Positions 5,765 through 34,341 of a stretch of DNA of 64,000 nt are shown piece by piece. Origin of the DNA: Jaapia argillacea MUCL 33604 (taxonomy: Eukaryota; Basidiomycota; Agaricomycetes; Jaapiales; Jaapiaceae). Within the stretch, counting starts at the first letter, position 1, and each line of letters opens with the position of its first letter. Position numbers and translations under genes: made by a program. The DNA lies in the NCBI GenBank assembly GCA_000697665.1, contig KL197746.1, positions 16,702 to 80,701 on the forward strand, given 5' to 3'. The notes under the pieces are model-generated. The model saw only the letters and a list, made by a program, of their open reading frames with translations, ran no database searches and was not told the origin of the DNA.

Positions 5765-7977
5765 CTATGCGGATAGGTTAAGGCGAAGACCGAACCGATC
5801 CCAAACTATTTTTTTCTCTCCATTCCAGCGCTTCACGAGCTCAAGAGTGCAGGCATCGCAATACCTATCCGTCTCCCTAGTCCAGGTGCCTTTCGCCGCA
5901 TCAATAAGTTCTTGAAATCCAGTGATGGGGTCGTAAAGATGGTCCGAGAATATCGGCGTCCCGTGAACCATGCGAGACCAATGTGTGTCTCGCTGGTTTT
6001 CATTTCCGGAGAGGCATCGATGGAGAGGGCCGGGAGAAGAGGAAGACGCAGTAACCGAAGAGGATGAAGGCACTGACGAGGACTGGAGGGGACAGATCAT
6101 GGTCGGTGCTCTGCTAGTGGTGGCTACCCAAAAGCGCGCCAGATCTTCCCTGGCTTCGATCAACCCCAACAGATCTGCTGGGCTCAGAGCCACTCTGTCG
6201 ATCGGTCCAACAAGCGCCGAAGTCCTCATCTTTCCCTTGCCTTTCCCAGAGCTTTTCTCCGTTGCCCGAGGAGAAATTGACAATGATTTGTCAATGAGGT
6301 CGCTCTGACCCATCCCACTGACCCGCACCAGTTCATAGAAGGCTCTCTTCATGCAGATTGATATCTTTTCTTCCTCGTCTTCAGTAAGAACGGCGCTCCC
6401 GAGAACCTCTCTTCCCAAGAGAATGATATGGGTCGAATCAGAGGGTCTGATCTCTGAAGCTCGTGTGACTTCAGGTACGAAGATGGAATTGATTTGTGTA
6501 AGGGCGAAGGTGCGGTATTTCGGGAAGGAAAGGTGGACTGCTGCGCGAAAAATCGCAATAACATCGGCACAACGGGGTGGGCTTTGGATGTACGTGCTAG
6601 AAGAGCAGCAATAGATAGACTAGATTAGATTAGGATAGTAGAAATGAGCTGAGCACGCACATAGCATCCCTCATAGCGATCAGCAACTTCTCAAAGTCGT
6701 CTGCACGAAGCGCCTTAGGAAGGACTTTGTGAACCCGACACCTTTCTAACATTTCGACACCCTCTGCCTCCCCGACGCCATCGTCTGCGCCTCCTTCGCC
6801 GTCTTCACCATCATCTGTCTCGCCATGATACTCCGTGGCTTTACGCTTCCCCTTTCCTTCGAATATCTCAGCAAAGTAAGCCGATTCAGATATGAGGACA
6901 GCGCAGTGAAGGCGGAATAATGTGTTTTCCACTTGGATGATGACGGACCCATCGAGATACCAGAATTCAGAGGAACGACGACGAGGGGGGGAGAGCGAAG
7001 AACGGCCAGCAGCTAGTTTGGCCCTCTTCGAATTAGGGACCTTCGGATCAAATGCGAGGGATGAACGCCTTCTTTTCCGGGCAGTTAGGGTGGGTGATAC
7101 ACGATTTGCTGTAGTTCGGGAACCACTGGGCTGCGATGAATCCAGATCGTCACACGATGTGGAGTCGTCCGAGATAGAAATGGGGCTCTGGGGCCTCCTA
7201 CCGGATTGCTTTCCAGGCGATACAGTTTGGTAAATGGAAATGGATTGAGATTCGTATTTGGGTTTGACACCCTTGGACGTGACGGACTTCTTCGATGGTG
7301 ATTGCAACAGTCGAGGTTTCGGTCGAGGCCGCGAAGAGGAAGATGTCCCCTCATATGGTGTTCTGAATTGAGACTGGGAGCTGGGGGGCTGGGTGGACAT
7401 TAACAGGTCACGAATATCAGCGAGTTCGGGGGATGACGATCGAGCATTGCCGGACGAAGAAGGTGCATCGAATGCATCTTCATCAGCCTCCGGGTTTCGG
7501 TTCAGTTTCCACCCCTGTTCCGAAGACCCTGCTTGTGACGGCGGCTCGGTCGGTAAGGCTAGAGGAGTGGCCAAAGGAGATAGCTGCGGGAAAGGTGCTG
7601 CCCGATGAGGGGCGGAACCACTTGTGGGCGATGTACTAGGGTGTCGCGGAGGTTCTGCGCTCGCTGGGGGATTTTCATGAGCCGCAGTAGGTATGCGTAA
7701 CTTGGGGGCTGGCGCTGTGCCACGGTCATGACCACATCAACTTCTCCCATAGACTGGAAGACATACCCTTCTGCGGAGAATGATTCGCATTTTCGATATC
7801 TCCAGCTGGGGATATTCTGGGTCCTCCAAGCGATCGATTTTGGTCGGAACCTGAGGCCGCACTCGGAGGAGACGATACCACGTCTGAAACATGTGCACGA
7901 TCTTGGGACGAGGATGTTCGACTGGCACTCACACCCATCTTTTTCAACGAGCTGGGTGACGATTCGGCGCCAGGCAT
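5765..7977 (-). CDS. BTB/POZ domain protein with disordered N-terminus (696 aa)
   Basis: Three exons on the minus strand: 7977-7767, 7708-6661 and 6596-5765; phases match. The first ~310 residues are low-complexity Ser/Pro-rich, with a basic patch (RKRRRSS). A BTB core follows from about residue 319: FWYLDGSVIIQVENTLFRLH, then SESAYFAEIFEG, an acidic insert, and DDFEKLLIAM. The helical part after the BTB has FRAAVHLSFPKYR and AFYELVRVSG. The C-terminal region has conserved Cys (MICPL, YCDAC) and ITGFQELIDAAKG. BTB proteins of this fungal type are thought to be protein-interaction adaptors; no substrate can be inferred. The downstream neighbour at 8519-11321 is a paralogue sharing the BTB-internal intron (same phase, same 64-nt length). 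The start ATG is provisional because the N-terminus is not conserved; an upstream exon is possible. Confidence 0.75.
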
Positions 7978-8518
7978 ACTAGCTAACAATGCATCTGAAC
8001 ATTCCACCGCCGTTCAATGTCGACTTGAAGGTTAAGTACTCACTTGATAGCTGACAATCTCCCAGTTGACGACTAATCCCAACAGATCCGCGTCAACACC
8101 TATAATCCCAATAATACCTGGCAATGAGCAAACCCACCTTCGTAACACTTCCGACAATGCAATATGCTTTTCCTCCAGATACGACGGGGACAGCCCAAGC
8201 AAGCGAAGTGTAGTCCGGAGTCTTGTTTTCCGACGCGATTTCCTGATCGCACTATGCATTCGCAGGAGCAGCGGTCAATCTGGCATGATGGGAGAACTGG
8301 TGGCCGGGATGGTTCAAATAGAGCTTGGTTGAGGGCGCAAAACGCGTCGGTGGCTGGAATTACTTTGACGCGTCGAGACTTCTCGGTGCCATTTGGAATG
8401 GGCACCGGGACACGAACTTCTGTCTGGCGAGACAAAGCAGTTGGGACTAAGATAAATGCATCTACCGTAAGGAAGAAATAGTAGCACTAGGAATAAAATC
8501 AAAGTAACTAGGTATTCA
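7978..8518. other. Spacer between the two BTB genes
   Basis: This holds the 5' flank of the shorter BTB gene and the 3' flank of the longer one. Several overlapping frames of 75-111 codons occur on both strands but none continues the Ser-rich N-terminus or resembles a domain. I see no supported gene. Confidence 0.5.
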
Positions 8519-11321
8519 TTATAATGGTCCCCACTGCAGTAACCAGAACTCAAGTTCATCCCACAACCTCTCCCTCCGATCTGTCCAAGTCTCAATCCTC
8601 GTCCGCACACACTCATAACAATACCCCTCCTTCTCCCACTCCCCCGCAGCATCAATCAAAGCCTGTAACCCACATATAGGATCATAGATATACTTTTGGA
8701 ATATCCCAGAAGTATGAACCGAACCAATCCAATGCATCATCTTCTCATTGGCAGGTAAACACCTTTTCGGGGTCGGCAAGGTTGAAGCTGATGCTTCCGG
8801 GTTGGGAGGGTTGGGAGCAGGCGGAGCGGCATCCAAAGGACAAGTGAAGTTGGGAGACGTAGAAGCAACAAGCAACCACACTTGCGTCAACTTTGCGCGG
8901 ATCGTCGTCTGCAGTTTGAAATCTTCCGGCGCTAAAGAAACCTCATGGAACTCTCCACTCCCCATTCCCTCCATCTCAAACGACTCATTAATATCCCTCT
9001 CCCTCTCTTTCCCCTTCCCATTCTTGACGAGCCCAGTATCCGGATCAACATCCACCAGTCCATCACAAACGCCAAGCTCCGAAACCCTCGCCAATTCATA
9101 AAATGCTCGTTTCAAAATCCCTTTAACAACCTTATCATCCTGGCATGGATCACAGAACACGCGCGCAGACCGGTATAATCGACAGCATATAACTGCTTGT
9201 CGTGCCCACGTCGGGTGAATGCCCATGCGTAGCTCAGTCATAGCATGTAACTCCGACGGGAGGAAACTGGAGAGACGAAATATCGCATAAGAGGTGTATT
9301 TCTCAAAATCGAGGTGCGTCGCGGCTCGGAGGATCGACAAGAGGACGAAAAATTTTGGGGGTCTCGTCACGTACGTACTGAGATTCCAAACAACAAAGAC
9401 ATCAACGAGGAGGCCACGATCGAAAAGCGAAAAAAGCTTACATAGCCTCATCCATAGCAGAAAGTAACACCTCAAAATCATTCACGCTCAACCCCTCCAC
9501 ATCAACTTCATAAACAGCACACCCATCAATCTTTGTCAGATCGTCCATCTCATCCTCACCACCACTGCCGACTCTGCTCTCCCCACGCCCTTCAAATAAC
9601 TTCTTAAAATACTCAGATTCATAAACCAACCTCGACCGATGAACCTTGAACAAAGTATCCTGAACCCGCACGACGACCGACCCGTCCAAATGCCAAAACT
9701 TCTCCGACCGACGAGGAGTCATTCTCGAACTTGAATTCGATAGGCGTGACTTTTTGTTCGGAGGAAGACCAAAGGAGTTTGTAGAAGCAGGTGGTATCGA
9801 TCGTTTGCGTTTCGGTTTCGGCTGAGATGTAGTAGATGGAGGTCGGCGTGAATCGGTGGAAACAGGTGGAGGGGGCCTGCCCCTCGTCTGTGCTCGTTCT
9901 CTACCATTCTGACTGCTTATCGGGGGTATCGCTGTGGGAGTCGTCGAGACTTTTTTCTTCGGAGGAGACTTTAGTATTACCAATCTAGATAAACAAATGG
10001 GTTTCGTCAGCTGATGTTCATCTCTCGCAACTCCGAAGGAAAAGACGAACCGTGCAGATGCAAGCGGTATATCGGCCTCTGATTCCGACTCTCTCGCGGG
10101 ATTAGGGACAATCGGTATTTGGGACGGGGCTTTGTCCAAAGACGGACGAGGTTGAGATGAAGTGGGAGGAGCAGGGGTCCCTCTCAATAAATCTCCCAAC
10201 TCTGGTAGCACTGGTGAAGGCGAACGAGACATATATATGTCTGAAAGGGAGGAACGTCGGTATATGCCCTGTTGAGAATCGGGTATCGAAGGCTGATCAT
10301 CATTTTGAGACGGTACCGATGACGCTGGCACCGCAGGTGCAGCTCCGGTCGCTGAATCTGTGGGAGGTACTGCAGGAGTATTTGCCGAAGACTCCGTGTT
10401 TGGAGAATCTGACGCTGCAGGTACAGGAGGGGCACTCGATGGCGAAGAAGTGTTAGCCATAGTCGACGAAGAGGCTCCTGACGGTCCAGCATCGGGACTA
10501 TTGTTCGAAAGTGCCAAAGATTCTCGTATCGCTCGTTGTAACTCCTGATCTTCAAAAAACGACTCATGTAACGCTCTCTGCAACTCTGGATCCTCCTCCT
10601 CCAACCCATCACGCCGTGCAGTCGACCACGCAGATGAGGCAGGGTTCGTAGCCGAGATTCCGGAAGGACCTGCAGCAGATGGATCTGAGGTCGTCTCGTT
10701 CCCGGGCGCGATAAGCGCGAGGACCTGATCGGTAGGCATTTTGGCTATATCAGCTGCAGTGAGTATCGATTCGGAGGTCGACGACGTTGTGACTGGTTGT
10801 GCTGGAGCTACACTAGTTGCTGGAGGTGCATTGCGAGGAGCTCTGGATTGCGAAGCTTGTGGTGGAGGTGGCGGCGCATTTTGGGAGGTAGTGGACGCAG
10901 GTTTTGGTTGGGAAGATCCAGATGCGACAGATGACTGAGGCTTCTTCGGCACGGTCGCCTTCTCCCGCTTCACCACGACTGTAGATGGTGTCGCGAGTTG
11001 CGCGTCAGAGGTTCGGGCGTTCGTCGTAGTGGCTTGTGCCGCTGTAGAAGATGCTGAGGCTGGTGGTCGCGTCGCAGCAGCGGACGGCGTAGCCGGACGG
11101 TTGCTGAGAGGAGAGGCTGCAGTAGACTGCGAAGCCACAACTGAGGCTCTAGCCTTCCGCTTTCCTGTAGAAGGAGGACCGCGTAAAGCGATGGCTCTGA
11201 AGAAGTCACTGTGCGCACCTGAGTCAGCAGGCTGAGACTGGCTTGTAGACCGTCCGTTTGTATTACGCGACGAGGTTGAAGGGGCGGATGATGGCGTCGA
11301 AGAGGCTGCGTTCTGCGACAT
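8519..11321 (-). CDS. BTB/POZ domain protein with two ubiquitin-interacting motifs (890 aa)
   Basis: Exons 11321-10051, 9984-9442 and 9377-8519 on the minus strand. The first intron (9985-10050, 66 nt) keeps the frame, so it was accepted on its splice sites and a CTGAC branch site rather than on need; retention would add 22 residues. Residues 1-510 are disordered and Ser/Pro/Ala-rich. Within them, residues ~241-272 hold two adjacent UIM-like helices, EEEDPELQRALHESF and DQELQRAIRESLA, with the acidic lead-in and the Ala-x3-Ser core of the motif. The BTB domain starts near 520 (FWHLDGSVVVRVQDTLFKVH, SEYFKKLFEG, DFEVLLSAMDEA), followed by helices (ILRAATHLDFEKYTSYAIFR) and the same Cys-bearing C-terminal region as its neighbour (FTCPL, YCYEC, ICGLQALIDAAG). 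It is a paralogue of the gene at 5765-7977, which lacks the UIMs. A role linking ubiquitin recognition to BTB adaptors is inferred. Confidence 0.78.
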
Positions 11322-12054
11322 CGCACCACCTCTTGGAGTACTACTACTAGTGGCAGGGATATTTTCTGGGATGCAAGGTCAAGATCATCTGTGGTGGACG
11401 GCATTTCGTAGTCGACCCACCGGGAGTTCTGCCCAGGTCACTCTGAGACGCAGACCTCAGCAGACTCGACCTCGTTTTCCTAGCGTCCATCACCTACTCT
11501 TCGAGTCACGATAGGTGCTGTAGGACAAAGGGGACGGAAACGACCAGACGAGGAAAGATAGCGACGGTGACAGCAAGTTACAAATTGATAGTCAGGTTGC
11601 AAAACCTACTCAGACGCACGGAATTGACATTCCATTGTTAGCCGCGAGCAAAACGATCCGAATGCAGCAGTTCTCATCAATTCTGAGGTCGCTTCACCTG
11701 GAGAGGACTCCGACGACACCGCTAACGGTCGGGTATCAATACCTGCCGTGTGTATATTTTTTATCGACCTGACTATCGATCTGTAACTTGCTGGAAGAGA
11801 AAGAAGCTTCGCGGCAATCATTCACGTTTATTAGAGTTTGAGCAATTACCCCACGTGGTCGAGGATCTTCAAGCGCTTCTCCCGCAACGTATCTCGCCCT
11901 GCCAGTGGAACTCCAGTGGACCGTAGTTTCTGGCGACCAAGAACCCGCTCCGTCCCCTCATACCAAACCAACCCATTTCTCTACCATTACCCCCTTCTCC
12001 TCCCCCCTCCGATTCCTCCATCATTGACTCGACCTGACAATGCCGTAACCCCAT
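11322..12054. other. Upstream region of the UIM-BTB gene
   Basis: No protein gene is supported. Open frames shorter than 145 codons are low-complexity shadows or random. The region should contain the promoter of the minus-strand BTB gene and, at its right end, upstream sequence of the tRNA. Confidence 0.5.
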
Positions 12055-16634: not shown

Positions 16635-19600
16635 TCACTCCCCAGACCACTCCCCAGCACTAGCAAGACTAGCAAACACCCCATTCTTCTCCATCAACGC
16701 ATAATACGAACCATCCTCCACAACCGCACCGTCATGAACAACCAAAATCCTATCACACATCTGCATCACAGGCAACTTATGCGTGACCATCAAGGTCGTC
16801 CTCCCAACCTTGGCATCGCGAATAGTATCCAACACCGCGATCTGGTTATGCGAATCCAGCGCCGAAGTACATTCATCAAGAATGAGGATCTTGCAAGGTC
16901 GAGCTAAAGCGCGTGCGATCTGGATACGTTGAGCTTGTCCACCAGAGATGAGAGAAGCGTTCTCTCCAAGCATAGTATCGTAGCCTTTGGGCAAAAAGTG
17001 AATGAATTCGTGGACGTGAGCGGCCTGCGCAGCAAATTCGATATCTGCTTTTGATAGTCCACTGGTGCCATACGCGATATTGTCCGAAATGGAAGCGTCG
17101 AAGAGGTTGGGGTTCTGGCTGACGACGGCGACGTGATCACGAAGGTAATCGACGTTCATAGCGCGAACGTCGGTCTCGCCGATGGTGATAGCGCCAGATT
17201 GAGGTTCGTAGAGACGCTGAAGGAGGGCGGCGATGGTCGATTTGCCTGAGCCGGAACCTCCAACGATGGCGACACACTCGCCAGGCCTGAGTTCGAGCGA
17301 AACGTTCTTGAGGATCTGGACGTCGGGTCGTTCGGGATAAGAAAACGAAACATTCTTGAACGCAACGTTCCCTTCAACGACGGGCTTCAACTGCCCTCTC
17401 GACTCATCGGTGTTATACGAAAGTTGCATAAGTCGGTTAAAATCCCGAGTAGCCTGAGTAGACTTGGCGATCCGTTGAGCTACAAAACCATCATCAGGTA
17501 CACCTCCTCCAACTCAAAGAACAAAAAACACGTACTGAAGGACATCAACTGAGACCCAAGAGAAACCGAAAAGATCATCAAATTGAGAGTTTCGACCATC
17601 TGGAGGTAGGTATACGTTCCCCTCGCGATGAGGACGGCTCCAACGTAGAAAAGGAGTGCTTCAGAGAGGTAAATGAGGGCACTAGCAACACCATAAGTGC
17701 ACCCCTCAACAAACGCTCCCCTCACACCAGTCGAAAGGGCCTCCTCAACAGTCTCTTCAAACTGCCTCTGGAAAATGCCCTCAAAACCCATCGACCGAAT
17801 ACCCTTAATATTCGAAATAACCTAAAACCCAACACCCAATCAACACCAAACCCCACAAAAAAGACGCAAAAAAAAACACTCACATCGTAGTAAGTCTTGG
17901 CAACCCCCTCCCTAGCCCTCTTATTCCTAAACTCAAACCTCGCAACAAGGTTCGTCTGCACAGCCATAGTAACCACAAAAACAGGCGCAATCGCAAACCC
18001 CACAAGCGTAAACTGCCATCCCCTAACCAGCGCCCAAATCAACCCAACACCAAGCATCGCACAAACCACCAAACACTGTGCTACAACAGTAGCGATCAAC
18101 GTCCGGGCATCGTCGCCGTCTTTAATCAGGATGTTCATCAGAGCCACTGAGGAGTTCTCGGGTTTATCGAAATATTTCTTGTCTTGAGCTAGGACGAGCT
18201 CAGCGCATGATTTCCGAACGCGAGTGACCCAATTCATAGCGAGCGTCTCCATCACAATGAATTTCGTCCCCATGAACAACCCATCGAGGGCTGCGACGCC
18301 CAAGACGATACCGCCGTAGGCATTGATGGTAGAAACGTTTGTAGCGCCAATGGATACTTCAAACATGAGTTTGGAGAGGAGGAACGAGAAGATAGGTGTC
18401 ATAGCTCCGCTGATGACGCAGATCGTCAAGCCGAAGAAGAGCATGGGTTTGTTGGGGATGGTGGGGTAGACGGCTCGTAGGAGTGCCCAGAACGTCAACG
18501 GCGCTTCTGCCTGTACGGGCGCTTGCTCCCCCTCGGGCTTGTGTTCATCAACTTTAACACTAACCATCTCAACCTCCCTCGGCCCATCCCACCTAGCCCT
18601 AACCTTCTTCTCCGCCCCGCCCACCCTACTCTCAGCAGCCCTAATGCCACTCTTCTCCAAAGCAACCTTCTCAACTTCAAACTCCCTATCCACAATAACC
18701 GACGACCCCCTCCTCCCAAACTTCGGCGAAGTAGGCGAGAACTGTAAACTGAGCCGGCGGGAAACGGTAGTGCGTGAAGGAAGCGGTGGTGCGATGTCTG
18801 GGATGTAGAGGCTTGAAGGTCGGCGTGAACGCGATTCGGAGGTAGGTTCGGGAGCGAACGCTTCAGCTGGTACGAACCTACTAACCCTCCTCTCTCCACC
18901 CAAAGCGCCACCCTTGACAGCAGTCAAATCAGCAACAGCATCAAACATCCAATTCCCCAGAGTCAAAGGTCTCCCCATAGTCAGTCTCCTCTCCCCCTTC
19001 CCAACCTCAGCCTCCTCCAATATCCTCTCCACCTCCTCTCTTTCCCCTCCGTCCCCGTCCACCTCTGCCTCATCGGATTTCGGAGGCAAACCACCCACCC
19101 CACTCTGCGCTTCCATCAAACTCTTAAACTCCCCATCTTGGTTCGTCTCGAGATCATATCGGAACCCTTGTTCGACGACTGATCCATCTTTGAGGACATA
19201 AACGAAATCTTGTTTTTCAATTTGTGAGAGGTCGTGTGTGATGACGATAGTAGTCTTGTCTCCTCTCCATTTCTTGATAGCTTCAAACACTAATAAACGG
19301 GATGTAGCGTCCAGCGCCGACGTAGCCTCATCTGTACCCACATCAATTCCCATCAGTTCCCACCCAACCAAACTAAACGGGGAGAGAGAGAAACGCACCA
19401 AGAACCAAAACACTCGGATTCCTCAACTTAGCTCTAGCAATAGCCAGCCTCTGCTTCTGCCCCCCACTCAACCCCGCTCCTCCACTCCCAAGCATCGTAT
19501 CATACCCATCCGGTAAATCCCTCACAAACTCATACATCAACGCTACCCTACAAGCTTCCACAACCTCTTCCCTAGTCACATCCTCCGGTCGTCTCCCTCC

Positions 19601-21319
19601 ACCAAGGGAAGAAGAAGCGACACCCATGGCGACGTTATCATGCACCGTCATGTCGAATAGGATACACCCCTGCGAAACACAAGCTACATGTTCCCTCATG
19701 AACCCCTCATCCAAAAACCCAATATCCTGATCATCCAATTGGACACAACCTTGTTGAGGGTCGTATAACCTCAACAACAGCGCCGCAATGGTTGATTTGC
19801 CAGACCCAGAACCACCGACGATAAAAGTGGTTTCGTTAGCTGGGAGGTAGAGTGATACGTCGTTTAAGACTGGGATGGTAGGTCGGGAAGGGTAGGCGAA
19901 AGTGACGTTTTGGAGGGAGAACTCTCCTGTGCATCGGGTTGGTACGATCCTGCGGAATTGGGTTGGTCGACGTTTCAAACCCATGGAAGGTTTACGTTTC
20001 GCGATGGGGAGGGTATTGAGTAAAGTCGTACTAGAGCGAACGGTAGGTTTGACTTCGGTAGGTTCCTCGACGAGCCGAACGAGCGAGGCCATGGCTGATT
20101 GACCTTTGGTGATGACGACGAGTTGAGGCAAGCACATCTGGAGGTTGCTAGTAGCAATCAAGCAAGCCCAAAACACCGCCATCACATCGCCCGCACTAGC
20201 CTTTCCCTCTCTAACCAACCTAGACCCAAACCAAAAACCCTGCACAAACATCCCCATCATCACAAACTGTCCCGCCCCCGAACTAATCCCAAAAACCAAA
20301 TTACATTTCTTCGCCGCCTTCCTAACTTTCTCCACCGCCTCACTAATAGCATCAAGTTCGAAATGGGAGGCGTTGAAGGCTTTGACGGTGGAGATGGCTG
20401 AGATGGCTCGGTCGACGAGGGTGGCTGCGATAGAGGTTTGTTGGCGTTCGAGTGTGAGACGGGGGATGACGAAGGATTGGGAGAGGGCTTGGAGGAGGAT
20501 TAGGGCTGGGACTGCTGAGAGGATTACGAGGGTTAGGGAATAGGAACGGGTGAATGCGAGGAGGAGGGATGCGAGGGATGTTGTGAAGTATTGGATGAAG
20601 AATCCGGAGGCGAGGGATGAGGCCATACGGACCTCGTCTGTTTCCCTGCGAACGCGTCAGATGAGGGAAGAAGAAAAAAGGGAGAAAGAAGGAACGTACT
20701 TTGCGAATTGGGCCATGAGGCCACCAGCGCCTACAGGTCCTTCAGCAACAGACTGAACCGAACCTTCAGAGCCCAACTTGGTATCAAACCAAATCATCTC
20801 CTTCTGCGTAACACTCTCATAAACCCTAGTCCTCAACCTCATCACATTCCTCTCTCCAACCCAAATCCAAAGACACGAAGTGATACTGCTCAAGACTAAC
20901 GCGCCAACGGCGAGTGCTACGAGTTCGATCGCAGCCAAGCCGACACCGTTGAGGAGGGCACGTTTGGCTGATTCGGGTGGATTGGGTGTGAGAGGGAAAG
21001 CGGCGAATGCGTCGAAGGATTGACCGATGACGTAGGTCATGAAAGGTGCGATACCGCCAGAGATGAGCGAAGAGAAAAGGGCGGGTAAGAGGAGACAGTA
21101 AACATCTCGCCTGGAGACGAGTGAAAAAAGGAGGCCGACGGAAGGTTTGGGTGGGGTGTAAGTGTGTGGAGGGTCGGCAGAGGGTAGGGCATCGAGAGTG
21201 ATGGTGGATTGGATATCGAGTTTGGACTCTGGTGAATAAATGTTAAAATCGTTTGGAGTCATTTCTTCTTGGATATCAGAAACTGTCGTGTCGACAGCGA
21301 GGCCCGATGGGCGACGCAT
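16635..21319 (-). CDS. Full-length ABC-B transporter, STE6-like pheromone exporter (1481 aa)
   Basis: Five exons on the minus strand: 21319-20700, 20645-19399, 19331-17884, 17821-17536 and 17479-16635, all in phase. The layout is TMD-NBD-TMD-NBD. NBD1 has Walker A GGSGSGKST, signature LSGGQKQR and Walker B VLVLDEATSALD, the last split by intron 2, with switch His in VITHDL. NBD2 has GGSGSGKST, a variant signature ISGGQAQR, Walker B ILILDECTSALD and VTHKL. Both TMDs have typical hydrophobic segments (e.g. FFGLTICVISGAMTPIFSFL) and QDKKYFDKPENS in the second half. The ISGGQAQR plus DECTSALD combination resembles the fungal Ste6 farnesylated a-factor exporters, which act at the plasma membrane, but a general MDR-type pump cannot be excluded. 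A ~200-residue charged linker joins the halves. No pheromone gene or homeodomain mating gene is visible nearby. Confidence 0.85.
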
Positions 21320-24187: not shown

Positions 24188-25453
24188 TTACAAGGTATCA
24201 TAATTCCATGGGAGGTAAGGGGCCTTATTATTAGCGGTATTGAGCCAGGTAAGGAGGCCCGCTTGCTGTACCTCAGGCTTGCTAATCAATAGCCCCTTGA
24301 CCACAGTGACGACACTGCCATTCCTCGCAGCGGCAGAGCTAAGATGAGCCTTGAGGCTAAACTCCAAAGCATTCGCGTTCCTCATCGCGATCAACATAAT
24401 ATAAAGGCCGTTCGTCGTAGGATCGGATCTATCACGGGCATCTGTCTCCCAAATCGCCTGCTGAACTATGGTTTTGCAAATCAACCGATTGACTCGAGCT
24501 CTCCAGTCCGCCTGAAAGGCCTGCCGACCGTCCCACTGGAGACGAAGATCTCTGAGCTGTGCGATCTGAGCCGCATTGAAGCGAGGTTGAGTACCGGGGG
24601 GAGGAGCTAGGCTGGCCGCGATGGCCGCCCCCATGTCAGCCATGACATTGGTAGCGGGCCCGACATGGTACGTGTTATCGGGCCAGACCCTGACTTCGCT
24701 GTCCAACGGGAAGGCAGGGACGTCGTTAGGGTATGCGAAAGCGGTGAACATGTTTCGGGTGGTAGGGTTGAAGGAAAAGAAATCGGTGTGGGGGATGGTT
24801 TGGAAGTCAAGGGAAACGATTCGGAAATTGGCCACATTTCGGTTGGTGTACACGTTCTGGAGGATACGTATGAGGGTGCTTCTTGACTCTGCGCCCGACG
24901 CATTGGCAGGGTTACCAAATCCGCCATATAAATAGATATTGGTATCGGGATAGGTGAAAATATCGAGCATAGTCGTGAGGGAGCCGTCTCCGTTGTCCTT
25001 ATCGACGTGGGCCAATGCAGCCACACCGGCGGCTTGGCTGTAAACGAGGACGGCGACGCAAACGGAGATACTTTGCGTGTAAAGGATTCGACGTGTGGCG
25101 TTGGTATCGACGATACCGAAGGAATGTTGCTCGACAAACACGGAGGTCTGACCAAAAGAACCAGGATCAGATGTCTTGTCCTGTTGAGCCTGCAATTCTT
25201 GCAAGTACGGCACCTTGACGGTGGTCACACCTCCGAATGTCTGGATCTGGGAGATGGGGACACACCATCCAGGGTATGCAGCAGTGTTGAGTTTACGGAA
25301 AGTGGGGGTGATGACGCCGTCGGGATTTTGTGCGGCATCCTTATGGTTGACTTGGGCCCAGAGGTAGTCATACAAGTCTTGGCCGACAGTGGCTGGATTG
25401 GGTGCGAGCCAGGTTTGTGCTCCGTTACCGACTTTCAGGTGAGGGGCGGCCAT
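24188..25453 (-). CDS. NTAN1/CheD-like cysteine deamidase, paralogue A (421 aa)
   Basis: A single-exon gene starting at MAAPHLKVGN. Residues ~103-180 resemble protein N-terminal asparagine amidohydrolase (NTAN1): VFVEQHSFGIVDTNATRRIL, SVCVAVLVYSQAAGVAALAH, then IYLYGGF (LHLVGGF-like in NTAN1). Thr126, Cys132 and His149 keep the T-x5-C-x16-H spacing of the CheD catalytic triad; NTAN1 keeps the same Cys-to-His distance. NTAN1 deamidates N-terminal Asn of proteins for the Arg/N-degron pathway, while CheD deamidates receptor Gln. Which substrate applies here is unknown. The protein is about 110 residues longer than animal NTAN1, with a C-terminal helical extension (FNAAQIAQLRDLRLQWDGR). No signal peptide or membrane span. 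It is head-to-head with a close paralogue at 27262; most of the N-terminal 330 residues match. Confidence 0.72.
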   Translation of the reverse strand: MAAPHLKVGNGAQTWLAPNPATVGQDLYDYLWAQVNHKDAAQNPDGVITPTFRKLNTAAYPGWCVPISQIQTFGGVTTVKVPYLQELQAQQDKTSDPGSFGQTSVFVEQHSFGIVDTNATRRILYTQSISVCVAVLVYSQAAGVAALAHVDKDNGDGSLTTMLDIFTYPDTNIYLYGGFGNPANASGAESRSTLIRILQNVYTNRNVANFRIVSLDFQTIPHTDFFSFNPTTRNMFTAFAYPNDVPAFPLDSEVRVWPDNTYHVGPATNVMADMGAAIAASLAPPPGTQPRFNAAQIAQLRDLRLQWDGRQAFQADWRARVNRLICKTIVQQAIWETDARDRSDPTTNGLYIMLIAMRNANALEFSLKAHLSSAAARNGSVVTVVKGLLISKPEVQQAGLLTWLNTANNKAPYLPWNYDTL

Positions 25454-27261
25454 GGTGAACAGTCTGGGAGGGTGTGAGTATAGACGGTATGTCGGTCAGG
25501 AAGTAAGCTTACAAATGATATCAAAAGTGTGGACTGCGAAGGGGTGAGTAGTGAAGGGCAAATGTCTTCGTGTCGCTGTGGAGGATATAGGAGGACACCA
25601 TGTTAAAAGGGCATGAGGGAGTAGCATCCGAGGACTTACCACTATCGGTACGATGAGAGGAGAATTTGTTGGATCTCCAGTAACATTGTCGTCGTTTAAA
25701 TACCAAAGCCCTTCTTGACCCAGCGACCGCGTGTGCGATATGACAGGTACAGATATTTTTCTGATAGTAATCTCCGAGTCAAAGGGAAGAAAGAAAATGC
25801 ACTAGGACGAAGCCAAATGTCATGGGGAGTGAAACACTACCGACCTACAAGCGATATACACGGTCATTTCGTACCGAAACAGACGGTAAAACTCCTAGTG
25901 ACATCGCATTCGTAGCCGCCGCCTGGAGCTCTGGAGCTAACAAAGGTATGGGGAAAGGTACATTCCGACCTTCTCGCATTGTTAGAGACAGTCAGAAAAG
26001 GCTGGAGGGGGAAGACTAGAGGGATGCGGGACTTGGACGGACAAGACTGTGGCATCCAAATTGAAGACCGTGTACCTGGAGGCTAGAGGTCTGGGACATC
26101 CAACTGTGCTATCCATATATCGGAGCGTTGAATTAACTTGGAGGAATAGTGCAATGGTAACATGATTGCATGAGAGACACCGTAACAAGTCTGATAGTCA
26201 GCGTCGCGGAGGTAATTATAAGTTCCCACGAGCCAACACTGTCTACACTACCGACATCGAGCAGTTCGATCTTCGACATGCAACGCTTATACGGACGGCT
26301 TCCTAATCAGTCGGTTTGACTTACCAGTCAAAAAAACCTTCCTTGTGGCAGAAGCAATCTAAGCTTTGGGTCGGGCATGCTATTGGCTGGCCGACGTGTG
26401 TCCCTGGTGGGCTGTGGTACCTGTACAGCCAACCGCAAACTAGCGCCTACCTGGACCTGAACTGCATCTTCCTCCTGCGACAATCACGATAACCTGAGCT
26501 GACTCTGTCTAGGCCAATCGCTCTAGGATTCTGACTGCGTTTTCAATGGTTTGGCTACCAAATCAATATGGGAAATCGGCATACCACGTCTCTTAACAGC
26601 GACCTCCCACCTACCATTACCGCTTTCCCTTTGGGTTTCAGAAAATCCCATGTCTAAACCTCTTCATTGTACCAGTGTGCCGTTTCGCCGACTAGTCCCG
26701 TTTTCTTCGCCCGCTCCTTCACTAGTTTCGTTTCGCTGCTACTCAGCAATTGCGACCAACTCGGAATGGTGCCTGTAGGTCTGGAACTTGAGACTTGGGC
26801 TTGCCGATGCAAGGTATCAGCTGACATGGTCGGCATGAAATGACCTTGTGCGTCGGAGTGTCGCACTCTCATGTCGCAATAGTTTCTACCGCTCGTGTTT
26901 CATTTGCTTGCTATCCTCATCGCCTACGGTCTTTCCTTTCCACCACCGCCCATTCGAAACTGCGACGAGATCGGAATGGTACCTATCCAAATCAAATAGC
27001 ATCGACGCAACGGCCCAGGACTGCGTATTTATCGCAAAGGATATTGACCTGAGGGAATCAACAAATCCCCCTCTCAGCTCTCGGTAAGTCCTCGCAGTGT
27101 ATTGCCAGCCATTCTCTCACCAAGTTTCCCCCTCAGTTCTCGCGTCCGCTCGAAGAACATCTCATACACACAGTCTCCTTCGCACCTTTTTGATCAACTT
27201 GTACGATGTTTGCTTCGACTGGCTGCACATCATACTCATTCTTTCTCCCAGCCTTTTCACA
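25454..27261. other. Shared divergent intergenic region of the twin deamidase-like genes
   Basis: 1.8 kb between two divergent start codons with no supported gene. It should contain both promoters. A diverged duplicated block lies in its right half: 26686-26780 and 26900-26995 both run from a TTTCxTTxCxCC tract through GCGACxAxxTCGGAATGGT to ACC/GCC. The frames seen here are short and unrelated to either gene. No TATA box close to either ATG is obvious. Confidence 0.5.
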
Positions 27262-28509
27262 ATGGCAGCTCACTTGAAAGTCGGTAACGGAGCCGATACC
27301 TGGGTCGCACCCAACCCAGCCACCGCTGGCCAAGACTTATACACATATCTCTGGGGCCAAGTCAACCAGAAGGATGCCGCACAAAATCCCAACGGCGTCA
27401 TCACCCCCACTTTCCGTAAACTCAACACTGTTGCATACCCTGGATGGTGTGTCCCCATCTCCCAGATCCAGACAGTCGGAGGTCTGACCACCATCAACGC
27501 GCCATACTTGCAAGAATTGCAGGCTCAACAGGACAAGACATCCAATCCTGGTAGTTTTGGACAGGCGTCCGTATTTGTCGAGCAACATTCCTTCGCTGTC
27601 GTTGATACCCGGGCCACTCGGAGAATTCTCTATACGCAGAGCCTCTCGGTTTGCGTTGCCGTCCTTGGGTGGAGCCAAAGTGCTGGTGTAGCTGCATTGG
27701 CCCACGTAGATAAGGACAATGGAGATGGCTCGCTCACAACCATGCTCGACCTTTTCACGTATCCCGACACTCGGATCTATTTGTATGGCGGGTTTATCGG
27801 CAGCACAGATTCGGTCGACACATTGAAGCGTATCCTCCAGAACGTGTACACCAGCGGAAATGTGGCCAACTTCCGAATCGTTTCCCTTGACTTCCAAACC
27901 ATCCCTCACACCGACTTCTTTAGCTTCAATCCTATCACACAAAACATTTTCACCACTGTCGCGTACCCTAACGATGTCGCTGCCTTCCCATTGGACAGCG
28001 AAGTCAGGGTCTGGCCCGACAACACTTACCATGTCGGCCCCGCTACCAATGTCATGGCTGAAATGGAGGCGGCCATCGATGCCAGCCCAGCTCCTCCCCC
28101 TGGGACGCAACCTCGTTTCAACGCGGCTCAGATTACCGAGTTGCGCCGTCTCCGAATGCAATGGGATGGCAGAGCGCTGACGACGGCGGCCTGGAGGGAC
28201 GGAGTCAATGCATTGATTTGCAGGCTTATCGTCCAGCAGGCGTTCGCGGAGAATGTCCCACCCATCACTACCAACCCCACGGTGCATCCCGTCTACGCCA
28301 AATTAGTCGCGCTCAGGAATCCAGTCGCGCTTGAGTGCAGCCTCAAGCAGCACTTTGATAAACTCGCCAGCCACGGGGATACTAGCGAGACCATTGTGAC
28401 AGTGGTGCGCCTCCATCTCGCAGACTCGGACCAATTGCAGCAGATTGCATTGAACTCGTGGTTGAATACGGGCACCAACAGGGTTCCCTATGGCGCATGG
28501 CTCTATTAG
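27262..28509 (+). CDS. NTAN1/CheD-like cysteine deamidase, paralogue B (415 aa)
   Basis: A single-exon gene. The frame is open upstream to 27097, but the ATG at 27262 matches the N-terminus of paralogue A (MAAHLKVGNGADTW). The triad Thr125, Cys131 and His148 (TQSLSVCVAVL...ALAHVD) and YLYGGF are conserved, so the protein is probably active. Differences from paralogue A concentrate in a small deletion after YLYGGF and in the last ~110 residues, where sequence and length diverge (ends NRVPYGAWLY). The absence of introns in both copies is notable in this intron-dense region and could mean that an intronless ancestor was duplicated. Function is inferred from family resemblance only: a cysteine-dependent amidohydrolase, probably cytosolic. 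Confidence 0.72.
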   Translation: MAAHLKVGNGADTWVAPNPATAGQDLYTYLWGQVNQKDAAQNPNGVITPTFRKLNTVAYPGWCVPISQIQTVGGLTTINAPYLQELQAQQDKTSNPGSFGQASVFVEQHSFAVVDTRATRRILYTQSLSVCVAVLGWSQSAGVAALAHVDKDNGDGSLTTMLDLFTYPDTRIYLYGGFIGSTDSVDTLKRILQNVYTSGNVANFRIVSLDFQTIPHTDFFSFNPITQNIFTTVAYPNDVAAFPLDSEVRVWPDNTYHVGPATNVMAEMEAAIDASPAPPPGTQPRFNAAQITELRRLRMQWDGRALTTAAWRDGVNALICRLIVQQAFAENVPPITTNPTVHPVYAKLVALRNPVALECSLKQHFDKLASHGDTSETIVTVVRLHLADSDQLQQIALNSWLNTGTNRVPYGAWLY

Positions 28510-28863: not shown

Positions 28864-30410
28864 ATGCAAAAGTCCATTCGACGTCTCTCCATCCTTTTCG
28901 GACTTGGGAATAAAGGCGATTCTCAATGCCCATGGTCCTGCATCCCCTCCGAGATTCTTGCCTTGATTTTCCAATACCTCGTCGTTGATTGCGAGAGCTC
29001 CATCGATCAGAGTCTTTGGGACGAGTTTGAAAACCACGAATTCACAGGCGAAGACTTGAATCTGAGAGCCTTTGTTTCCGGTCAAGCGAGGCTGAGCGCT
29101 ACCTTACTCGTTTGCCGGTCATGGTACGTTTGTGGGGCAAAGGCCTTGTACTCGAAACCGGCTGTACGATCCGCCGAGAATTTACACCTTCTCGAGCGGA
29201 CGCTCCGACGAAGACCCGTCCTCGCCCAATTGGTGCGATGTGTCGAGGTATTTAACCTGTCACGGAATTGGCCTCGGACGACCTTATGGGAAGGGTTGAT
29301 GGAGTTGGTTGTGAGGAAAGAGAAGAGGAAGAGGAAGCGTTACCGCAAGGATCTACGGTCCGTTATTGATAAGTGTGTCCAAATACACTCTTTGGGCATC
29401 CGTACCGCCGTTTTCGAAAAACCCATATCGTTCGACCTTCACCTCATCACACCCTCACGATCACACAACCTCCGACGTCTTTCTCTCCATGGAAAGTGGT
29501 TGTTCTCGCACTCAATGCTATCACCTGATATCGAACTCCCTTTGTTGGAAGACTTGTCGCTCGAGTCGTTCAGTCTTCACGAAGACAGTCGGTGGCCAAA
29601 CTTCCCCTCCCTCCGACGCATCCGCATATCAGATTGTGGATATTTCTCTACACCGGGACGTATGCCGATCTTACCAGTTGGATTACCGTTCCTCGCCGAG
29701 GTCGAACTATCCAAGATATGGTCGAACGATTCTTATCGTGACATCGTCGATGTCCTCTACACCTACTCAGAGACTCTCCAGTCTCTACAGATGGGCGGAG
29801 TTTGGATGGCCACAGCGTCACTCGAACTCGAATACTCCCGCTTCACCTCTCTCAAGCGGCTCATCCTCGAACCGGACGAACTATGGCCCGGGTTTTTCCT
29901 ACCCCAGACCGTGGCCCAAGCACCCGCGCTCGAAGTTCTCTTCATCTTGATGTGTGTGCCCATTCAATATGGTGTTACTCAGGTCACGGAGACGACGTTG
30001 TTGGAGAGGATGTCGATCCATTTGGGCGTGGGAGAAAGTCATGCAAAGTCATTCCCAAAGCTGAAAACATTGTTTATTGAGGGGGATTTGGTAGCTTGGG
30101 GATGTAATGGGCCGGATTCGGTAAAACTTAAGAACCTTTGCGACTCGAGGGGAATTGACTTGACGTTGAATTTATACGGTGAGAATCATTTCCGGTTCTT
30201 CACTCCCTCGCTCTACGTTCGATCTTATCCAATCTGACCGGGCGTTCACAGATTTTGCACAAGATGGTTTCCAGCCGCTTTTCACCAAGGGAGTCGCAAG
30301 AGGGTGGAGGTGGCAATCTCCCTTAGGATTGTTGGGCATGTTACTCAGTACGTTCATCGCCTTGAATTGTGATTCCGAGGCTAATTAACATATGGGTAGA
30401 TGACATTTGA
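28864..30410 (+). CDS. F-box protein with leucine-rich C-terminal part (473 aa)
   Basis: Exons 28864-30178, 30252-30347 and 30400-30410. The two 3' introns were placed because donors, acceptors and phases fit; without them the protein would end 20 residues after the first donor. An F-box-like segment lies at ~20-80: CIPSEILALIFQYLVVDC, then LVCRSWYVCGAKALY. Downstream are irregular leucine-rich repeats of the basidiomycete F-box type (HNLRRLSLHGKWLF, LPLLEDLSLESFSLH, FPSLRRIRISDCGYF). Proteins of this type are expected to join Skp1-Cullin ubiquitin ligases as substrate receptors; this is one of a usually large family, so the substrate cannot be guessed. The terminal coding exon is only 11 nt (ending NDI). 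Confidence 0.75.
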
Positions 30411-30638
30411 CGCAATCATGCCCATCTTGAGATGTTGAAGTTAATACGGGTTGAAGGCGACCCGACGGGATTGTGGACCTCGGTTTGAGTGTACGAGAGT
30501 GTTACGAACACACGGCACCGAATATCTAGCTTGTTTGACTTGTCTCAATGCTCATGTATCCATTACTTAACTTATCACTTCTAAATCCTTCATCCCGAAG
30601 TTTGAAGTGTTGCCATATGCACGAACGATAATCTATAA

Positions 30639-33600
30639 GGCCCTGTTTGGCAACTCCAATAATCTGGATTCTTGAAGAATCCACTGCGAGAAAGCAAGAA
30701 TCCAGATTCTGATTGGTGGAGCTTGCGACACCGGATTATCCAGGCAGCCGCGAAAAGTTTAGCTTAGTCAGCTGAGCGAGTTTGCTTGTATTTGGTCGTG
30801 CGCACCCCGTGAGAGAAACATAGCCCATGAGAACCCCGTGTGAATAACATACCCCAAGCATGTCGTGAGAAAACACAACCTATGCGGCATCTGTGGGTCC
30901 GTTGTATTTGGCCGTGCGTGTCTCCAAGAGTTGCCTTTTCGGGTTACTTGGTCTGTTTCCTCCGAAATTCAAAGCCTCTGCTGTACATCTCTCATCTCAG
31001 TCACTATCCTGGCTTGCTATATACCAAAATTCATCAAAAATTTCGCTTTTCAAGTCTATTCTGCTATATTCACTATGTATCTTGCCTCACAACAACTCAA
31101 GAGGGCAAAACTGGATTGAAGAAATGCAAAAGCTAGGGCTAAGCATGCTAGCCAATCTGGAGCTCAAATCCCTGATTCTCTTCACTCTGTTGGAGCTTCT
31201 CAGAGTCTCATGGATCGTACTCCAAGGCTACAAAGTACTACAGAAGCTGGGAAGGTTGATCAGCCTTCTAGAGGCAGAGCTGTCTCATCAGTTAGTAAGT
31301 GATTACTTGACTACATATCCTACCCTATCATAATAACCTGGGATTAGGGTTCTCTCCCCAGCAAATACAGAGTGATAAAGGTGAGTAGAAACCCATTTTT
31401 TAAAGCTAAATCTTATTTGATTCAATTTAGCCATGAACATATCACCTGATCAAAGGCAAGTGAGCAGTGATATGCCACAGAGAGTATAAGAGAATATGGA
31501 AATTGGTTTGTATTGTTGTATTGAGTTCAACCATTGCTTCACCCTATGCCAATCAAGGAACAAATAGAGGCTGTAAAGTGGCTAGAAGTTCAAAAACGAG
31601 GACTCACTGGAGATGAGGAATTTGACTTACTAGAAGCAGATTGGAGGGATCTAAAAGGGGGATAACAACAGGTGTTTCTACAAGTCATTGCTTATATTAA
31701 AGCTTTGCTGGATCCAGGCACTCCTGATCCTTAGCCTCTCAGAATAAATGTTGATGGAACAGCAGGAACAGGAAAATCTTTTCTAATTGCTGCAATATCA
31801 ACAGAAATCAAGAGACTTATGTTTGAAGCAGGGAAGGCTGATGCAACAATCAGAGTTGCCCCAACAGGCATTGCAGCTTATGGGATTAATGGATTTACAA
31901 TTAATCTTGGTTTTTCAATTCCAGTCAAGCATTGGGGTGACCTTAACACTGGACATCTTGTAAGACTGCAGACAAAGTGGAGAACTTATAAGATTGTTAT
32001 TGTTGATGAGAAATCAATGATGGGCCAAATTATCTTTGGCAAAATGGATCACCATCTTCGGCAAATCTTTCCTCAATATACTGAAGAGACTCTGGGAAAT
32101 ATGAGCTTTGTCTTGTTTGGTGATTTTGCTCAACTTCCACCTGTGGAAGATAAGTCACTGTATTCACAAAAGGCTACCTGTGTGAAAAGTGGCTTAGCTG
32201 AAGATGGAAAGTGAGCATATGAATCCTTCAATCAATATATTAAACTGCAGCATGTCTTTAGACAAGCAGGAGTAGATGCAGCTGCAGAGGCATTTCATCG
32301 GATTTTATTAAGACAAAGAACTTACTCAATTGAAGAAGAAGACTACACATTACTTTCTACTCGTTTTAGAGAAAATGTCAGCCCAGAGGAAAGGGCTGAA
32401 TTCAATTCAGCAATTAGGCTATATCCAACTGGTGTAACAGTTAATAATCATAATCTAACACAATTGGCTTTCTCAAACAAACCTGCTGTACGTTGTAAAG
32501 GTAGACATACTGGAGGGAAGAAGGCCAATACTGCTGTTGCTGAGGATGCAGATGGCCTTGAAAGAGAAGTGTTGCTGGCTGAAGAGGCTCAAGTGATGAT
32601 CACACGAAATTTATGGGCAGTAATTGGTGGGTTCTTCAAATCAGATTGAGATTATATACTAATACTTACCTACAGGTCTTGTCAATGGAACACATGGGGT
32701 AGTGAAGACAATTGTTTATGACCCCAATTCCAATCCAAAGATAGACCTACCTGCTGTTGTGTTTATTGAAGTTAATGGCTACTCAGGTCCTTCAAATGAT
32801 GCATGGAAATCTGCAGATGGCAAGCCCTGGATTCCTATTACACCAATTACTGTGCAATGGGATTCTAGTACTGGTGACAAACTATCAAGAACACAGTTGC
32901 CACTTAGGCTTTCCTAGGCAATGACAATTCACAAGAGCCAGGGATTGACTTTGAACAAAGTGGTGATTGAACTTGGAAGTACAGAGTTTGCATCAGGGCT
33001 ATCATTTGTAGCTATGTCAAGGGCCAAACAGCTGAGTGGAATTCTCTTTCAGTCAAGCTTTCCAATTAGTTGCCTTCAAAGAACAGCAAAAAAAGATGGG
33101 AAATTCATTTAGAGGAAGATGTGGAAAGAAGGAAGCAGCTAGGTCTCAATTCAAATTTGTTTGGAGTAGATACAACCATGTACAACTTTTCCAGTTAAAT
33201 AGTATTTACATTGTGTAGATCGCATGCTCCACCAAAATGAGGGGCACCCTCATAAAATACATAGTTTATTCTCAGATTCTTGCTGTGGAATCTGTGAGAA
33301 CTGTCATACAACGGACCCCTTGTGGACTGCCGGTGGACCACTTCGATGTGACTGGACCTGTACCACTGTGACTGGAAAATATCACTTCCGGCACTTTCTG
33401 TCCCCAACTGGGCCGCTCACTATTGGAGACGACGACAAAGACAGACCGACGTTGCTGGGGATGTATTTCTTATGTATATAAGACTTTTGTTTAGAAACTT
33501 CCATCCACGTTCACGAGAGGCGCCACAGAAAAAATTTGTTGAGCTTGCTGTCGCCAACAGCGACAAACATGGTCTTGGCATTGAGGAAGCACGGCATCAC

Positions 33601-33735
33601 CTGATTTGGTAGCCTTACAGCCTTGGTCTCTATGATGTGCCAGACCAGGTGCTGGACCACAAGAGCCCAAGTACTCGTGGGATGGTAAATAATCTGACTC
33701 AATAATCTGGCGAGATTCTGCATGCCAAACAGGCC
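30639..33735. mobile_element. TIR-bounded DNA transposon carrying a PIF1-like helicase relic
   Basis: The left end GGCCCTGTTTGGCA at 30639 and the right end, read on the minus strand as GGCCTGTTTGGCATGC from 33735, form terminal inverted repeats differing by one base indel. Each is flanked outside by TAA (30636-30638 and 33736-33738). A GGCC..TGTTTGG terminus with a 3-bp TWA target duplication is the pattern of PIF/Harbinger elements and their MITEs. Inside, AATAATCTGG recurs near both ends, and an inverted repeat AATCTGGATTCTTG/CAAGAATCCAGATT lies at 30661-30708. The interior is clearly AT-richer than the flanks. The cargo is not a Harbinger transposase but a PIF1-like helicase of the kind found in Helitrons, so either a Helitron piece was captured or the terminal match is fortuitous. 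Confidence 0.55.
31559..33112 (+). pseudogene. PIF1/Helitron-type helicase relic
   Basis: One plus-strand frame carries helicase motifs in order: Walker A VDGTAGTGKSFLIAAIS (31750-31800), RVAPTGIAAYGING, Walker B-like KIVIVDEKSMMG (31990-32025), VLFGDFAQLPPV (32113-32148), LQHVFRQ (32247-32267), VMITRNLWA (32594-32620), GLVNGTHGVVKTIVYD (32674-32722) and the C-terminal MTIHKSQGLTL with FVAMSRA (32921-33030). A probable 49-nt intron joins the two parts near 32630-32675. Four in-frame stops interrupt it (near 31663, 31732, 32212 and 32917); at least two stand where Trp is expected (GK-W-AYE, LS-W-AMTIH), consistent with G-to-A decay. No Rep/HUH domain is seen upstream. In Helitrons this helicase unwinds DNA during rolling-circle transposition; this copy is inactive. 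Confidence 0.75.
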
Positions 33736-33738
33736 TAA

Positions 33739-34341
33739 TACAATCCAAAATGATGACTAATAAAGTCACATCACAAATGTGTCACTGACAAACCACTTGC
33801 CTCCTGGGGCCTCCCTCAGACCTCCGTTCAGCCATGTCTTGATCACGGATGTCTCAGGAGATCTATCCCTCTGAGCAACTCCCACGATTAGAAGTGGATG
33901 TAGAGTGTCGCAGGTCGCGGAACAAGGACAAAAAGACAAACCATGTGGCCAATGTGGTGTGTAACGCTTCCACGTGATTTGCCTGTGGCTCCATGGCCAA
34001 CAGTTTGTCAATGTCAAACAGTTTGGATTTCCAAGTCAGACTGGAATTATGCAACTCCCTCAATGAAATTTTGACAAGCCCTCACTCTCTGAATTGTTCT
34101 TGAAAAGGGCAACCATTTCCAATAACTCTCTCTGGCAGTGCACAGGCAACCTGCTGTCAGCCAGGTACTCAGCTTGCGAGGTGTGAATACATATGGCACT
34201 CTCAATCTTGGACAACTGAGCAGCTGAAGGGAACATTAGAGCTGGAGATGTCACTCCCCAGTATATCAAACTTCAAATTCATCCTGAAAATCAGTTGACC
34301 ATCCAGTGCAACATACAGGTGGGCTGCTGGGGCAACCAACA
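33739..34341. other. Spacer between transposable elements
   Basis: 600 bp between the TIR-bounded element and the outer hAT-like element. A minus-strand frame (34269-34060) reads SQAEYLADSRLPVHCQRELL and a shifted one continues near 34063-33863, which might be a relic of a gene, but no family is recognised and no splice pattern joins them. Nothing firmer can be said. Confidence 0.4.

What the first reader, a model, noticed from the sequence alone, without database searches (positions are those of the whole stretch)
24188..28509. Head-to-head intronless twins with a CheD/NTAN1-type catalytic triad
Both proteins carry Thr-x5-Cys-x16-His (T126/C132/H149 and T125/C131/H148). This is the spacing of the CheD glutamine deamidase triad, and the Cys-to-His distance also equals that in NTAN1. 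VEQ/VGQ, ALAHVD/THCDG and YLYGGF/HLVGGF resemblances point to the N-terminal asparagine amidohydrolase family. The extra ~110 C-terminal residues, the lack of introns in an intron-dense region and the divergent duplication are unusual. A fungal N-degron or receptor-type deamidase would be new if confirmed.
Basis: partly seen in the sequence, partly recalled or inferred. Interest (0 to 1): 0.8.

Follow-up and report, generated by a model that had tools for sequence, protein, structure and literature searches.

The report
Fungal twin NTAN1/CheD-like amidase genes
A fungus carries two neighbouring, mirror-image genes for a protein-editing enzyme related to the one that animals use to convert asparagine at protein ends into aspartate; the cutting residues are kept but several residues that choose the target are not, so it may well edit something else.

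Summary
Two divergent, uninterrupted coding regions (24188-25453 minus, 421 aa; 27262-28509 plus, 415 aa; 72-73% identical) each contain one [ST]-x5-Cys-x16-His motif at the stated residues. Pfam N_Asn_amidohyd (NTAN1) matches both (28.8 and 23.3 bits, cut-off 24); a search of the 43.7 Mb genome found no third place. Thr, Cys and His align with NTAN1 Ser69/Cys75/His92 and with CheD's active site. A core model built with CheD relatives but without NTAN1 finds human NTAN1 first in the PDB (E 4e-8), then CheD (5e-7), then YfiH types. So these are NTAN1/CheD-branch cysteine hydrolases, probably catalytic. An N-degron role is not supported: NTAN1 Thr74 is Val, Asp71 is Ser, Glu260 is not recovered in any of four alignments, and the genome also encodes NTAQ1, an Nta1-like nitrilase, ATE1 and UBR boxes. 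The '110 extra C-terminal residues' are about 57 before and 54 after the cysteine. The 5' leaders are homologous and share intron-like signals, which favours inverted DNA duplication over retroposition. Substrate unknown; distribution among fungi could not be tested.

The parts
24188..25453 (-). Twin 1 coding region, 421 aa (P0001), NTAN1/CheD-type cysteine hydrolase
   Evidence: Pfam PF14736 28.8 bits, residues 103-210 on profile 10-124 of 270
27262..28509 (+). Twin 2 coding region, 415 aa (P0002), paralogue of twin 1
   Evidence: Pfam PF14736 23.3 bits (just under the cut-off of 24; residues 102-167), 24.9 bits in the six-frame search
25007..25078 (-). Twin 1 catalytic segment T126 to H149 (T126, C132, H149)
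   Evidence: aligned to NTAN1 S69/C75/H92 in 4 of 4 MAFFT settings and to the CheD active site by hhalign
27634..27705 (+). Twin 2 catalytic segment T125 to H148 (T125, C131, H148)
24731..25159 (-). Twin 1 core used for the structure model (residues 99-241)
   Evidence: AlphaFold2 pLDDT 73.5, pTM 0.73; Foldseek top hits NTAN1 and CheD
25454..27261 (.). Intergenic region (1,808 bp) between the two start codons; holds both 5' leaders
25454..25703 (-). Twin 1 homologous 5' leader (250 nt) with candidate 5'-UTR intron (donor GTAAG at -186, acceptor at -122)
27012..27261 (+). Twin 2 homologous 5' leader (250 nt) with candidate 5'-UTR intron (donor GTAAG at -178, acceptor at -125)

Best explanation
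[quoted passage not shown] Most likely the cysteine (C132/C131), activated by the histidine (H149/H148) that the threonine (T126/T125) orients, attacks a side-chain amide of a protein or peptide, releases ammonia, and water then frees the acid (Gln to Glu or Asn to Asp). Shown here: homology, triad in register, a core model of this fold, purifying selection. Inferred: that the enzyme is active and that it is an amidase. The substrate is probably not simply N-terminal Asn, because NTAN1's Asn-holding shell is not kept.
For: Pfam PF14736 matches both twins, E 8.9e-7 and 4.1e-5, with no third place found in the genome. BLASTP of twin 1 with human NTAN1, E 0.002 over 88 aa, no gap between C75 and H92. 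Profile comparison with 12 CheD proteins aligns the active sites, score 28.7 against a maximum of 20.4 in 200 shuffles. The core model finds NTAN1 (4.3e-8), CheD (5.1e-7), YfiH types and, weakly (E 0.06-0.17), CNF; NTAN1 was not in the model's alignment. Cys, His, Gln51 and GGF kept, Ser69 replaced by Thr, in 4 of 4 alignments. dN/dS 0.26 overall. NTAN1 C75A and H92A are inactive and S69A about 5-fold slower (PMC7022378).
Against: Twin 2 is below the Pfam cut-off, and the match covers positions 10-124 of 270 at most. The hhalign score of the twins with single NTAN1 (23.3) is reached by 2 of 200 shuffles. phmmer and a two-row profile against PDB sequences did not find NTAN1 or CheD. The full-length model is useless (pLDDT 36); the core model leaned on CheD sequences, so its fold is not an independent prediction, and its match to NTAN1 is moderate (TM 0.66 by query, rmsd 4.7 A). 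Triad geometry not measured. Of 14 CheD loci, Cys-x16-His is in 14, but Ser/Thr six residues before the Cys in only 7 (3 have Ile or Ala, 4 pieces do not reach it), so the Thr is the least certain part of the triad. No activity data.
Confidence: 0.72

Rival explanations
1. The twins are true N-terminal asparagine amidases feeding the fungal Arg/N-degron pathway, with a divergent binding shell.
For: Best Pfam family is NTAN1 and best PDB fold is NTAN1; Gln51 kept and Thr73 only changed to Ser; the genome has ATE1, UBR boxes and NTAQ1, so a matching Asn-only enzyme would complete the animal/plant-type set.
Against: Thr74 is Val and Asp71 is Ser in both twins; T74A, T255A and E260A abolish human activity (PMC7022378), and Glu260 maps to Gln in 3 of 4 alignments and to Ile/Ala in the fourth. 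An Nta1-like nitrilase exon is present (best PDB match Nta1p, E 1.1e-5).
Confidence: 0.22
2. The twins bind but do not catalyse (pseudo-enzymes), or have become a different hydrolase on the YfiH-like fold.
For: YfiH-type structures, which are not protein deamidases, follow in the fold search. The specificity shell is changed, and the rest of the protein (N-terminal ~95, C-terminal ~135 residues) matches no Pfam family.
Against: All three catalytic residues are kept in both copies while about 27% of the aligned residues differ; dN/dS is 0.107 for residues 96-180 against 0.40 and 0.46 for the segments on either side (the last segment is saturated). That low ratio comes largely from a high Ks; protein identity there (87%) is close to that of residues 1-95 (85%).
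Confidence: 0.15
3. Chance motif in unrelated proteins.
For: The motif alone occurs in 0.7% of shuffles; single-sequence searches of the PDB miss NTAN1 and CheD.
Against: Pfam E 8.9e-7; CheD profile score not reached by any of 200 shuffles; fold search.
Confidence: 0.02

Closest known systems
NTAN1, protein N-terminal asparagine amidohydrolase (PF14736; human PDB 6A0E)
   Same: Profile match over the gathering score for twin 1; Ser/Thr-x5-Cys-x16-His in register; Gln51; GGF; nearest solved fold to the core model.
   Different: Thr for Ser69, Val for Thr74, Ser for Asp71; [quoted passage not shown] twin 1 is 111 residues longer; two adjacent copies.
CheD receptor glutamine deamidase (PF03975; T. 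maritima PDB 2F9Z)
   Same: Thr/Cys/His as in T. maritima CheD, same spacing; the CheD profile aligns over the active site; CheD is the next fold after NTAN1 in the PDB search.
   Different: CheD Pfam profile does not match the twins or the genome; the GSC before the cysteine in 14 of 14 CheD loci is SVC in the twins; CheD is about 157 aa and acts on bacterial chemoreceptors (PMC7022378).
Yeast Nta1 (nitrilase-type N-terminal amidase)
   Same: The known fungal route to deamidated N-terminal Asn/Gln (PMC7022378).
   Different: Unrelated fold and Cys/Glu/Lys triad (PMC7022378); an Nta1-like exon exists elsewhere in this genome.
Giant-virus CheD-like proteins (Moumouvirus, Mimiviridae sp. ChoanoV1, Tupanvirus, Fadolivirus)
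   Same: Five best matches among viral predicted structures, E 3e-8 to 2e-4.
   Different: 13-18% identity; four of five carry no functional name; no sequence relative found in viral contigs.

Membership tests
NTAN1 (PF14736) | Profile match over curated cut-off | tested here: met
   Twin 1 28.8 bits (over), twin 2 23.3 (just under 24); 30.3 and 24.9 bits, both over,
NTAN1 (PF14736) | Cys/His/Ser triad at S-x5-C-x16-H | tested here: met
   Same register, Ser replaced by Thr as reported for CheD and BLF1 (PMC7022378)
NTAN1 (PF14736) | Asn-holding shell D71, T73, T74 and Q51 | tested here: not met
   Q51 kept, T73 to Ser, T74 to Val, D71 to Ser in 4 of 4 alignments
NTAN1 (PF14736) | Appended region with S254, T255, E260 reading the N-terminal amine | tested here: inconclusive
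   Glu260 not recovered in any of 4 alignments, but the region aligns differently in 1 of 4; the Pfam match ends before it
NTAN1 (PF14736) | Alpha-beta-beta sandwich fold | tested here: met
   Core model best match 6A0E, E 4.3e-8, TM 0.66 by query, rmsd 4.7 A; the model was helped by CheD sequences, the full-length model failed
NTAN1 (PF14736) | Deamidates N-terminal Asn | not testable with these tools
   Needs an assay
CheD (PF03975) | Profile match over cut-off | tested here: not met
   None at E <= 1 for either twin; 0 places in the genome
CheD (PF03975) | Thr/Cys/His triad in register | tested here: met
   hhalign with 12 CheD proteins, score 28.7, 0 of 200 shuffles reach it; the Ser/Thr itself is in 7 of 14 CheD loci, other in 3, not covered in 4
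CheD (PF03975) | Acts on chemoreceptor glutamines | not testable with these tools
   Needs an assay; no chemoreceptor search was made in this genome
Nta1 nitrilase (PF00795) | Carbon-nitrogen hydrolase domain | tested here: not met
   No PF00795 match in either twin at E <= 1
NTAQ1 (PF09764) | Nt_Gln_amidase domain | tested here: not met
   No match in either twin at E <= 1; a separate gene elsewhere has it

The most novel reading that the evidence does not exclude
A fungal lineage has made, by inverted duplication, a new protein deamidase from the NTAN1/CheD fold: it keeps the CheD-like Thr/Cys/His machine, has lost the lid that limits NTAN1 to N-terminal Asn, has gained its own N- and C-terminal parts, and edits internal Gln or Asn of a protein still to be found.
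Probability: 0.4. Interest if true: 0.75.

Novelty: new variant of a known kind. Interest (0 to 1): 0.52.

Why it matters
PMC7022378 describes N-terminal deamidation in yeast by Nta1 alone, and NTAN1 and NTAQ1 from multicellular eukaryotes. A fungus that carries NTAN1-branch genes beside NTAQ1 and an Nta1-like gene makes the evolution of this pathway testable. If the twins act on internal residues, they would be an internal protein deamidase of this fold in a eukaryote, where the examples in that paper (CheD, CNF1, BLF1) are bacterial. The twins also bridge two families: they align at the active site with NTAN1 and with CheD, while my CheD profile and single NTAN1 do not align there with each other.

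Tried and rejected
Full-length AlphaFold2 model from the two twins alone: pLDDT 36, discarded. phmmer of P0002, of P0001 and of the two-row profile against PDB sequences: no NTAN1 or CheD, only weak unrelated matches. Searches for relatives in viral contigs, genome contigs and plasmids: none. PHROGs and NCBIfam: none. In one search twin 2 also gave two weak matches below cut-off, PUB (E 0.21) and SET7_N (E 0.22), taken as chance. PF14736 in prokaryotes: 0 of 5 genomes and 0 of 395 of one phylum; no control genome has the family, so absence is not shown. Default MAFFT alignment A4 put the last strands out of register with CheD and was not folded; in A5, which was folded, the helix before them is still out of register. 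Considered and rejected: retroposed copies (shared leader with intron-like signals); chance motif.

Literature: seven searches. The papers listed (20 of 766, 15 of 15, 15 of 12,519, 20 of 20, 5 of 5, 12 of 14, 15 of 65) show, by title and start of abstract, none on an NTAN1-type enzyme in a fungus; the unlisted ones were not seen. Read: PMC7022378, parts 1-4 of 6; passages only of PMC9427837 and of PMC3119188, where a Cryptococcus gene listed as 'Protein N-terminal asparagine amidohydrolase' is named NTA1. All others: listings only. The library holds open-access papers only, and fungal protein databases were not searchable.
Full report
What is there. Two coding regions face away from each other, 5' ends inward: 24188-25453 on the minus strand (421 aa, twin 1) and 27262-28509 on the plus strand (415 aa, twin 2). 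They are 72% identical by BLASTP. A whole-genome six-frame search with twin 2 finds only these two places in 43.7 Mb. Each holds exactly one [ST]-x5-C-x16-H motif, T126/C132/H149 and T125/C131/H148; shuffled twin 1 has such a motif in 139 of 20,000 cases.

How the pair arose. The inverted match runs through the coding regions (527- and 341-nt arms, each 86% complementary, and a weaker third of 68 nt) and continues about 250 nt upstream of both starts (score 104; 0 of 1,000 simple shuffles); the 3' flanks show nothing (234 of 500 shuffles reach the score). Both leaders share GGTAAGTCCTCG, followed by YAG sites 64 and 53 nt on, and a second GT/CCCAG pair next to the start. This looks like a 5'-UTR intron kept in both copies, hence DNA-level inverted duplication (inference; no RNA data). 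Divergence is uneven: protein identity 85, 87, 80 and 51% over residues 1-95, 96-180, 181-285 and 286-421, with Ks 0.20, 0.93, 0.30 and saturated. Patchy Ks fits gene conversion between inverted copies (inference). dN/dS is 0.26 overall, and 0.40, 0.107 and 0.46 for the first three segments; the low value of the second, which holds the triad, comes largely from its high Ks.

Family. Pfam PF14736 matches twin 1 at 28.8 bits (E 8.9e-7) and twin 2 at 23.3 bits (E 4.1e-5; cut-off 24). In the genome search the same two places score 30.3 and 24.9 bits and no third place was found (2 candidates scored). Human NTAN1 matches that profile over residues 37-304. BLASTP of twin 1 with NTAN1 gives E 0.002 over 88 residues. 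In four of four MAFFT settings Q51, S69, C75, H92 and G127-G128-F129 fall on Q109, T126, C132, H149 and G177-G178-F179 of twin 1. PMC7022378 gives Ser69/Cys75/His92 as the triad of NTAN1 and reports that CheD has Thr in place of Ser; the twins have Thr. Its mutants C75A and H92A are inactive, S69A about five-fold slower. Against this, sequence searches of the PDB with either twin or both did not find NTAN1.

CheD. The CheD Pfam profile does not match the twins or the genome. A profile of 12 CheD proteins from 14 loci does align with the twins over residues 122-153 in the right register: score 28.7 against mean 13.1, SD 2.1, maximum 20.4 in 200 column shuffles. For single human NTAN1 the score was 23.3, reached by 2 of 200 shuffles. 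Cys-x16-His is in 14 of 14 CheD loci; Ser/Thr at the -6 position is in 7, Ile or Ala in 3, and 4 pieces do not reach it. The reverse check, CheD profile against NTAN1, finds only the GG strand. A joint alignment of the cores brings the Cys, the His and the GG strand of all three families together, with a following helix and last strand in rough register.

Fold. The twins alone fold badly (pLDDT 36). Residues 99-241 with twin 2 and eight CheD sequences give pLDDT 73.5 and pTM 0.73. Foldseek then ranks human NTAN1 first (4.3e-8; TM 0.66 by query, rmsd 4.7 A), six NTAN1 chains ahead of CheD (5.1e-7), then YfiH-type proteins, and CNF weakly (E 0.06-0.17). NTAN1 was not in the alignment, so its lead over CheD is informative; that the fold is of this superfamily at all is partly built in. 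Among viral models the five best are giant-virus proteins, one annotated as CheD.

Function. The catalytic residues are intact. The NTAN1 specificity shell is not: Asp71 is Ser, Thr73 is Ser, Thr74 is Val in both twins; Glu260 maps to Gln in three of four alignments and to Ile/Ala in the other; Ser254/Thr255 map to Ala/Pro in three of four and, in E-INS-i, to Thr/Thr in twin 1 and Thr/Val in twin 2. T73A, T74A, T255A and E260A each abolish human activity. The C-terminal mapping is uncertain, since the Pfam match stops before it. The genome has its own NTAQ1 (46.4 bits for the best exon), ATE1, two UBR boxes, and a nitrilase exon whose best PDB match is yeast Nta1p (E 1.1e-5 against 0.016 for the next). 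So an N-terminal Asn route may exist without the twins. I judge an active amidase likely, N-terminal Asn as substrate possible, another substrate more likely.

Size. Twin 1 is 111 residues longer than human NTAN1: 57 more before the cysteine and 54 more after it. Neither the first ~95 nor the last ~135 residues match any Pfam family; the last part is the least conserved between the twins (51%).

Novelty. Known superfamily, unusual member. Seven literature searches (capped lists) showed no fungal NTAN1-type enzyme, but protein databases of fungi could not be searched, so it may already be an unnamed entry in them. I score it as a new variant of a known kind.

Noticed in passing
24188-25453 and 27262-28509: Synonymous divergence between the twins is patchy (0.20, 0.93, 0.30, saturated along four segments), which fits gene conversion between inverted copies.
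   Followed up: partly
2518-3216, 53399-54460, 57568-58050 (plus): Three copies of an uncharacterised gene family; matching pieces of these frames are 43-56% identical to each other. The one copy that was scanned (53399-54457) matches no Pfam family at E <= 0.01.
   Followed up: partly
5765-11378 (minus): Two neighbouring genes in tandem that look duplicated (37% and 31% identical pieces); one has a BTB/POZ match, the other was not scanned.
   Followed up: partly
31735-32211 (plus): PIF1-like helicase frame in a stretch of low GC (43% over 30001-34000); possible remnant of a Helitron-like element (inference).
   Followed up: no
16638-20656 (minus): ABC exporter frames with two ATP-binding cassettes and a membrane domain (the frame between them was not scanned).
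   Followed up: no
L008 and L009 (contigs C1 and C41): Two places match the ATE C-terminal domain (79.5 and 52.8 bits), perhaps two arginyltransferase genes.
   Followed up: no
Moumouvirus australiensis A0A2P1EL59 and four other giant-virus proteins: CheD/NTAN1-like folds in giant viruses, four of the five without a functional name.
   Followed up: no
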